This document shows, piece after piece, positions 46,675 through 51,586 of a stretch of 64,000 bases of DNA. The position numbers were made by a program, and so were the translations under genes. Position 1 is the first letter of the stretch; every line of letters starts with the position of its first letter. Origin of the DNA: Roseobacter cerasinus (GTDB taxonomy: Bacteria; Pseudomonadota; Alphaproteobacteria; Rhodobacterales; Rhodobacteraceae); contig NZ_BLIV01000003.1 in NCBI RefSeq assembly GCF_009811755.1, positions 372,001-436,000 on the forward strand, given 5' to 3'. The notes under the pieces are model-generated. The model had not been told where the DNA came from. It ran no database searches and saw only the letters and a program-made list of their open reading frames with translations.

Positions 46675-50906
<4,232 letters not shown>

Positions 50907-50946
50907 GGCCCTTTCGAGCGGCGCTCAAACATATTTGTTCGCATAT

Positions 50947-50961
50947 GTTCTTAATAAGTTC
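50947..50961. promoter_or_regulatory. LexA (SOS) box
   Basis: GTTC-TTAATAA-GTTC, an exact GTTC-N7-GTTC direct repeat as bound by alphaproteobacterial LexA. A third GTTC stands six bases upstream (50937-50940). It is 53 bases before the start of the 42-residue membrane protein. Confidence 0.65.
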
Positions 50962-51014
50962 TTTACATCACCTTGCAGATATGAGAACAAAGAGGCAACA
51001 AGAGGGAGTTGCCC

Positions 51015-51143
51015 ATGTCCTTGCTTTTCGAAATCGCCTCCGTCGCGTCCAGGTCACACAGGACGCTGCTGCAGGATGCCGCTGGTTTGATGGCTCTCGT
51101 TGTGATGCTTTTGGTGGGGCTGCATATCCCGTCCCTGATCTGA
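51015..51143 (+). CDS. 42-residue membrane protein, probable SOS-induced gene
   Basis: ATG at 51015 with AGAGGGAG before it; stop at 51143. The protein begins MSLLFEIASVASRSHRTLLQ and ends in a single transmembrane helix (GLMALVVMLLVGLHIPSL) close to the C-terminus. A LexA box lies upstream and a strong terminator downstream, so it is a stand-alone unit. In Caulobacter the LexA-controlled small membrane protein SidA (29 residues) blocks division after DNA damage. This gene resembles it in size, topology and control, but I see no sequence proof of homology. Confidence 0.7.
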   Translation: MSLLFEIASVASRSHRTLLQDAAGLMALVVMLLVGLHIPSLI

Positions 51144-51286
51144 TTTCTGCCTGCGATCTCGCGCCGCGCACAGGCCAGTTGCTTCCCCGAACTGGCACAT
51201 GAGACGAACGCTGCCTGTTCCGATCTCATCAGGGTTTGCCCCCCTGTCCTTGTGCTTCGGATCCCCCGTGAGAGACGCATTGCCTG

Positions 51287-51324
51287 GCGCCGCCGTCCTG
51301 CTCGGGACGTGCGGCGCTTTTTTT
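51287..51324 (+). terminator. Strong Rho-independent terminator
   Basis: A 12-bp stem GCGCCGCCGTCC / GGACG-T-GCGGCGC (one bulged T) with a 6-base loop and seven T. It ends the transcript of the 42-residue protein, leaving about 145 bases of untranslated RNA between its stop and the stem. Confidence 0.85.
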
Positions 51325-51354
51325 AAAAGAAGTATAGGCGAGGCGCAGACCGGC

Positions 51355-51516
51355 TCAGTGGTGGCCTTGCACGAAAATGGGCGCGGAGAGATCTTTCATC
51401 ATCTTGAACGCGCCGCCACCCATGTCGCGGCGGAAGACCTGCGACAGGAACGGCTCGGTATTGCGCCCGGCTTTGAGCCCCACGCGGTCGTCAAATATCT
51501 GAAACTGGCTTGTCAT
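51355..51516 (-). CDS. 53-residue small hypothetical protein
   Basis: ATG at 51516, stop at 51355. The product starts MTSQFQIFDDRVGLKAGRNT, continues FLSQVFRRDMGGGAFKMM and ends with APIFVQGHH. Codon use strongly prefers C or G at third positions as in real genes here, but the ribosome site is weak. It lies 70 bases downstream of the NifU-like gene start side and points away from it. Function unknown. Confidence 0.55.
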   Translation of the reverse strand: MTSQFQIFDDRVGLKAGRNTEPFLSQVFRRDMGGGAFKMMKDLSAPIFVQGHH

Positions 51517-51586
51517 AGTGCTCAGGGTGTTTCGCCCGCACCAGGAATGACAGCATTTACTTAAAAATCGCCAATTCGGGCAAGGA

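What the first reader, a model, noticed from the sequence alone, without database searches (positions are those of the whole stretch)
50937..51324. LexA box in front of an unannotated 42-residue membrane protein: SidA-like division inhibitor?
Seen: an exact GTTC-N7-GTTC (plus an extra GTTC upstream), a ribosome site, a 42-codon gene with one C-terminal transmembrane helix, and a strong terminator, together forming a self-contained unit just after recG. Known: alphaproteobacterial LexA binds GTTC-N7-GTTC, and Caulobacter SidA is a LexA-controlled small membrane inhibitor of cell division. Inference: this is a Rhodobacteraceae counterpart.
Basis: partly seen in the sequence, partly recalled or inferred. 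Interest (0 to 1): 0.75.

Follow-up and report, generated by a model that had tools for sequence, protein, structure and literature searches.

The report
SOS-type small membrane protein with structured RNA
Behind the DNA-repair gene recG, this bacterium and most of its relatives carry an unannotated gene for a 42-residue membrane protein that looks controlled by the DNA-damage response and whose message ends in a conserved folded RNA; its job is untested, but it is a good candidate for how these bacteria pause when their DNA is damaged.

Summary
Conservation makes the unit real. A profile of the 42-residue protein hits 257 of 295 family genomes; recG was found in 170 of 171 loci examined; pN/pS is 0.17. 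The operator is nearly invariant over 121 distinct windows, and 6 of 26 recG regions from genomes that mostly escaped the profile carry exact GTTC-N7-GTTC and GAAC-N7-GAAC boxes together. LexA control is therefore likely. Against it: a complete genome in which no LexA was found keeps gene and operator, and the window box has an atypical spacer (rank 22 of 90). New: the 3' untranslated region folds into a covarying multi-branch RNA, found once each in 85 of 295 genomes and directly behind the protein in 73 of 73 cases where both places were listed, with no Rfam match. 'Division inhibitor like SidA' is a reasonable, untested guess; SidA homology was not tested. Whether the published R. sphaeroides RSP_7527-UdsC unit is this locus is undecided.

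The parts
50937..50961 (+). upstream operator half: GTTC-N6-GTTC-N7-GTTC
   Evidence: conserved in 137 of 140 loci with recG (N7 pair)
50962..50967 (+). TTTACA, -35-like element
   Evidence: conserved position; promoter role inferred, consensus scan negative
50985..50999 (+). downstream GAAC-N7-CAAC, degenerate box overlapping the likely -10 or start region
   Evidence: exact GAAC-N7-GAAC at this place in 9 of 26 recG regions of mostly profile-negative genomes
51002..51008 (+). ribosome-site-like GAGGGAG
51015..51143 (+). 42-residue single-helix membrane protein
51146..51286 (+). structured RNA core of the 3' untranslated region
51287..51324 (+). terminator hairpin and U tract
   Evidence: terminator-like end in 139 of 141 loci

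Best explanation
A stand-alone transcript of about 330 nt (start inferred near 50992) is repressed by LexA and released when RecA inactivates LexA after DNA damage. LexA would sit on two inverted box regions that flank and overlap the promoter, an arrangement also seen at recA. The transcript encodes a 42-residue single-pass inner-membrane protein, N-terminus inside, and ends in a structured RNA. My commitment on the protein: it slows or blocks cell division while DNA is repaired, probably by its helix contacting membrane partners of the divisome (about 0.35 for this step alone). The 3' RNA is a small RNA released from the message or a control element of it. Shown here: conservation of frame, operator, RNA fold and place. 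Inferred: LexA binding, damage induction, topology and any function. The confidence below is for the LexA-controlled membrane protein with structured RNA, not for the division step.
For: Protein conserved and under purifying selection. Operator conserved. Six of 26 recG regions from mostly profile-negative genomes have exact boxes on both sides, G119, G019, G172, G317, G290, G125. recA and lexA boxes of the same genomes have the same half-sites, and the recA operator starts AATGTTCTC and ends AATGAGAAC like this one. Among good-quality genomes the protein profile misses 4 of 6 without a lexA hit against 28 of 254 with one. Covarying RNA, single-copy and directly behind the protein.
Against: G192, 100% complete, has no LexA DNA-binding domain hit and only a 27% hit to the peptidase half, yet keeps protein and operator. 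Window box spacer ranks 22 of 90 and the common family spacers score lower still. In two of the four lexA-negative, protein-negative genomes (G071, G101) the recG query found nothing either. 7 of 26 regions show no box at all. No expression data. A GTTC direct repeat of 10-11 bp could also suit another regulator.
Confidence: 0.6

Rival explanations
1. An SOS-induced membrane-active peptide like TisB or DinQ: a type I toxin whose message is held in check by structure or an antisense RNA and which damps membrane energy rather than blocking the divisome.
For: Small hydrophobic protein and strongly structured message; TisB and DinQ are described as LexA- or SOS-controlled membrane peptides (starts of abstracts in listings only: PMC8145889, PMC3567139).
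Against: Fixed behind recG across the family with a conserved polar N-terminal half and no charge in the last 18 residues, unlike sporadic toxin loci (recalled). An antisense RNA was not searched for beyond the simple promoter scan.
Confidence: 0.2
2. The operator belongs to another regulator that binds GTTC direct repeats; DNA damage is not the signal.
For: Retention in LexA-less G192; conserved A before the last GTTC and conserved CAAC instead of GAAC, unlike recA and lexA boxes.
Against: Divergent relatives show exact LexA-type boxes at the same place, up to perfect inverted twins in G290. CenR, the one alternative checked, binds TGA-N8-TGA (PMC9275681, passages).
Confidence: 0.2
3. The RNA is the main product and the peptide is secondary: a trans-acting small RNA with C-rich unpaired motifs.
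For: Covariation and conserved unpaired UCUGCC, CUGCC and GUCCC-like motifs.
Against: The protein is detected more widely than the RNA (257 against 85 of 295; the RNA search used strict filters) and is under purifying selection.
Confidence: 0.15
4. This is the counterpart of the R. sphaeroides RSP_7527-UdsC unit, so the RNA part is already partly described.
For: RSP_7527: about 300-nt message for a small hypothetical protein with a processed 3' small RNA (PMC6238624, passages); its promoter fusion rises with hydrogen peroxide and falls under singlet oxygen (PMC8625941, passages).
Against: Its promoter was assigned to RpoHII from sequence and the message is induced at elevated temperature. The passages read mention neither recG nor LexA. 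Position relative to recG could not be checked.
Confidence: 0.15

Closest known systems
SidA of Caulobacter crescentus
   Same: Small single-helix inner-membrane protein under LexA (PMC4211646 and PMC12700426, passages)
   Different: 29 residues against 42; no homology tested; no structured 3' RNA known to me; FtsW contact untested here
DidA of Caulobacter crescentus
   Same: Small damage-induced membrane protein with one helix (PMC4211646, passages)
   Different: 71 residues, induced by DriD independently of SOS
TisB and DinQ of Escherichia coli
   Same: SOS-controlled membrane peptides
   Different: Have antisense RNAs; here none is known; taxonomically unrelated; seen only as starts of abstracts in listings
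RSP_7527-UdsC of Rhodobacter sphaeroides
   Same: Short message with a small protein and a 3' untranslated-region RNA, same bacterial family
   Different: 67-nt processed RNA; promoter called RpoHII-dependent; relation to this locus undetermined

Membership tests
LexA regulon of alphaproteobacteria | GTTC-N7-GTTC (or its complement) in the promoter, conserved in relatives | tested here: met
   spacer atypical in the window
LexA regulon of alphaproteobacteria | Loss or retention parallels lexA | tested here: inconclusive
   4 of 6 against 28 of 254 good-quality genomes missed by the protein profile, but G192 and G202 keep the unit
LexA regulon of alphaproteobacteria | LexA binding and RecA-dependent induction | not testable with these tools
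   none
SidA | Short protein with one transmembrane helix | tested here: met
   hydropathy and charge, one helix 3-41 with pLDDT 91.6; membrane location itself is predicted only
SidA | Sequence homology to SidA | not tested
   SidA sequence not available; original paper not held
SidA | Contacts FtsW and blocks division | not testable with these tools
   none
Type I toxin-antitoxin | Antisense RNA against the message | tested here: inconclusive
   only a simple promoter scan, none found on either strand
Structured RNA families of Rfam 15 | Match to a described family | tested here: not met
   no match at gathering level; weak sX13 (19.9 of 50 bits) and BcKCsr2 (16 of 40 bits, other strand) only; no match over the element in 8 loci
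RSP_7527-UdsC | Same locus (behind recG) | not tested
   position of recG in R. sphaeroides 2.4.1 not available to me

The most novel reading that the evidence does not exclude
A family-wide, LexA-controlled dual-function RNA: one SOS transcript that delivers both a membrane peptide acting on division and a folded RNA with C-rich loops acting on other messages, fixed behind recG in most Rhodobacteraceae and unannotated.
Probability: 0.3. Interest if true: 0.85.

Novelty: new variant of a known kind. Interest (0 to 1): 0.66.

Why it matters
I know of no named effector of an SOS division checkpoint in this family of abundant, largely marine bacteria. The locus is conserved enough to be a core part of their DNA-damage response, small enough to escape annotation, and it pairs a peptide with a structured RNA. 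One deletion series in a tractable strain would ask two questions at once: how these cells stop dividing after damage, and whether their SOS response also acts through an RNA.

Tried and rejected
Judging the box by itself: rejected, chance-level. Filing by domain: Pfam and NCBIfam give nothing. Rfam: no family over the RNA. CenR as regulator: its motif TGA-N8-TGA does not fit. The conserved ATGAGAACAAA as an upstream start codon: rejected, the frame is not kept across the 30 loci, so it is DNA-level conservation. Homologues outside the family: in a class sample of 289 genomes the 4 same-family genomes listed match, 20 others only at E 0.003-0.095 with partial matches. Ruegeria pomeroyi small-RNA list: the places of its trans-encoded RNAs are not in what I saw (PMC4809877, outline, abstract, passages). 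Scoring the box with a matrix of recA and lexA boxes was uninformative for divergent relatives too: most of their exact boxes also score low.

Full report
What is there. The window lies in a 4.47-Mb genome. Genome G005, given as same genus, has a contig of 573784 bases, the same length as a contig titled Roseobacter insulae (loci L039 and L196), so the genus is probably the one that holds Roseobacter. recG ends at 50906. Thirty bases later come three GTTC half-sites (50937-50961), TTTACA (50962-50967), 17 nt, GAAC-N7-CAAC (50985-50999), a ribosome-site-like stretch, an ATG at 51015 and a 42-codon frame to 51143, then about 140 nt and a terminator ending at 51324.

The motif alone means nothing. 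GTTC-N7-GTTC is expected 1.06 times in the window and found once; in the genome it occurs 49+41 times against 59+51 for the pattern read backwards. The evidence must come from relatives.

The gene is real. In 59 genomes, own included, 34 have a match at E up to 1: the 18 other same-genus genomes at 1.4e-6 or better, 11 of 16 from other genera of the family below 0.01, and none of 24 from other families better than 0.45. A profile of 28 sequences hits 257 of 295 family genomes at E up to 0.01. In a class sample of 289 genomes, the 4 same-family genomes listed match and 20 others show only weak partial matches. Over the last 36 codons of 123 distinct sequences, 339 pairs at 75% or more nucleotide identity give mean pS 0.502 and pN 0.086, and differences fall 1660/748/4904 on codon positions 1/2/3. 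AlphaFold2 on 37 aligned sequences gives one helix, residues 3-41, mean pLDDT 91.6. The last 18 residues carry no charge in any of the 123 sequences; the 17 before them average 2.2 positive residues, so N-inside is inferred. Pfam and NCBIfam are silent.

The place is fixed. The C-terminal part of recG is found in 170 of 171 loci; the exception, L272, begins close before the protein. These 171 include 30 chosen by the operator pattern and some genomes more than once. Of 161 measured distances from recG to the operator, 160 are 10-149 nt and one about 410.

The operator is strongly conserved. Leaving out the 30 pattern-selected loci, 140 loci had recG; 137 have GTTC-N7-GTTC within 400 nt and 130 the extended form. 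The three without the motif are L157, L230 (spacer one base shorter) and L258. The consensus of 121 distinct windows is tttGTTCnCaAATGTTCTcAaAAAGTTCTTTACa, a variable stretch, aAaATGAGAACAAAgrggCAACA. GTTC-N7-GTTCTTTAC occurs in 202 of 295 family genomes; its reversed control in 24, counted by eye. In the own genome the exact form is found once.

Is it LexA? For: recA and lexA of the own genome and relatives have GAAC-N7-GAAC boxes, and the recA operator begins AATGTTCTC and ends AATGAGAAC like this one. I then looked behind recG in 30 genomes: 28 of the 38 that the profile missed, and G192 and G202, which have the protein but no lexA hit. Ten profile-negative genomes were left out as less complete or more fragmented. 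recG was found in 26 of the 30. Of these 26 regions, 15 have GTTC-N7-GTTC and 9 GAAC-N7-GAAC, against 0.1 and 0.25 in dinucleotide shuffles; six have both. Many hold a small frame with a hydrophobic tail (by eye), so the profile undercounts the protein. The degenerate downstream half of the main group thus looks like a decayed or retuned LexA box. Six regions (G237, G209, G151, G098, G236, G059) show neither box nor an evident frame, and G322 a frame without a box; in G098 the extended pattern lies on another contig than recG.

Against: the N7 spacer of the window ranks 22 of 90 by a matrix from 20 boxes, and common family versions score lower. lexA by PF01726 is missing in 15 of 295 genomes; the whole LexA protein then found truncated copies in two of them, G275 and G164, and weak peptidase-half hits in G101 and G192. 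Of the 6 good-quality genomes without a lexA hit, 4 (G071, G101, G209, G237) are also missed by the protein profile and 2 (G192, G202) are not; with lexA it is 28 missed of 254, several of which hold a diverged copy. In G071 and G101 the recG query found nothing either. G192 is listed as complete, so there the unit stands without LexA, or LexA was lost recently.

The stretch between stop codon and terminator is conserved and ends in a terminator-like signal in 139 of 141 loci. On 42 sequences, taken from 86 representatives as the closer lineages, RNAalifold found a closing helix and two hairpins, 13 of 14 pairs with changes on both sides. An earlier alignment of 96 more varied sequences gave only the closing helix and the terminator. 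For my 28-pair structure, 84.9% of cells are paired (76.5% in shuffles), 24 pairs have changes on both sides (15.1) and 131 cells (51.9); sliding the partners drops pairing to 32-48%. The structure was drawn from these sequences, so the paired percentage leans towards it; the double changes weigh more. The window's 51144-51325 folds at z -4.19, terminator included. A covariance model, run on the window and 67 loci, matched 28 of the 67 at E below 0.001, among them L141, L151 and L277, which were not used to build it; the others gave weaker or no matches. In whole genomes it hits 85 of 295, once in each; where the protein's place was also listed (73), the RNA starts 4-75 nt behind it in 73 of 73, 8 more start 184-212 nt after the operator, and 4 could not be placed. 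Strict filters were used, so 85 is a lower bound. Unpaired C-rich motifs recur: UCUGCC right after the frame, CUGCC in a loop, GUCCC or UCCCC in another loop and in a bulge of the closing helix (by eye). Rfam has no match there.

How it most likely works. Derepression by RecA and LexA after damage, synthesis of the peptide in the inner membrane, and action on division; the RNA as small RNA or as control of the message. LexA control is supported by comparison, the division step only by analogy: SidA is described as a 29-residue inner-membrane inhibitor that contacts FtsW (PMC4211646, passages), and Caulobacter LexA boxes are GTTC-N7-GTTC (PMC12700426, passages).

Literature. In ten searches of the open-access library I recognised no listed paper as being on this locus, apart from the open UdsC question. 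In silico LexA targets of D. shibae in the passages seen do not name it (PMC6473078). RSP_7527-UdsC of R. sphaeroides (PMC9779115, PMC8625941, PMC6238624; passages, plus one section of the second) is a 300-nt message for a small hypothetical protein with a 67-nt 3' small RNA; its promoter is called RpoHII-dependent from sequence. If it is this locus, the RNA part is not new. Passages on LexA in PMC6363796 and PMC7305329 did not bear on the locus.

Verdict. Observation confirmed; interpretation partly supported; a real, family-wide, probably LexA-controlled unit with a structured RNA. New variant of a known kind.

Noticed in passing
window about 51330-51530, minus strand: Remnant of a gene that is long in the relative L033 (1807-3120 minus, 437 residues, looks like a chemoreceptor by eye); in the window only a C-terminal piece is seen and it contains a stop.
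   Followed up: partly
   Followed up: partly
G031:C1:3113079-3113770, minus: lexA is read in two pieces, the first with a stop inside, although the operator and small protein are kept (locus L054).
   Followed up: no
L210:1130-1384, L138:69-313, L060:179-220, minus strand: Sub-threshold matches to the Rfam family Ysr141 (46.1, 22.1 and 24.1 of 196 bits), away from the RNA element and probably within the recG part; not examined.
   Followed up: no
L006, L065, L066, L069, L030 (own genome, near position 1501): Other GTTC-N7-GTTC sites shortly before frames, among them one before a uvrA-like gene (L030) and one before a likely DNA-repair gene (L069), both named by eye; candidates for the LexA regulon.
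   Followed up: no
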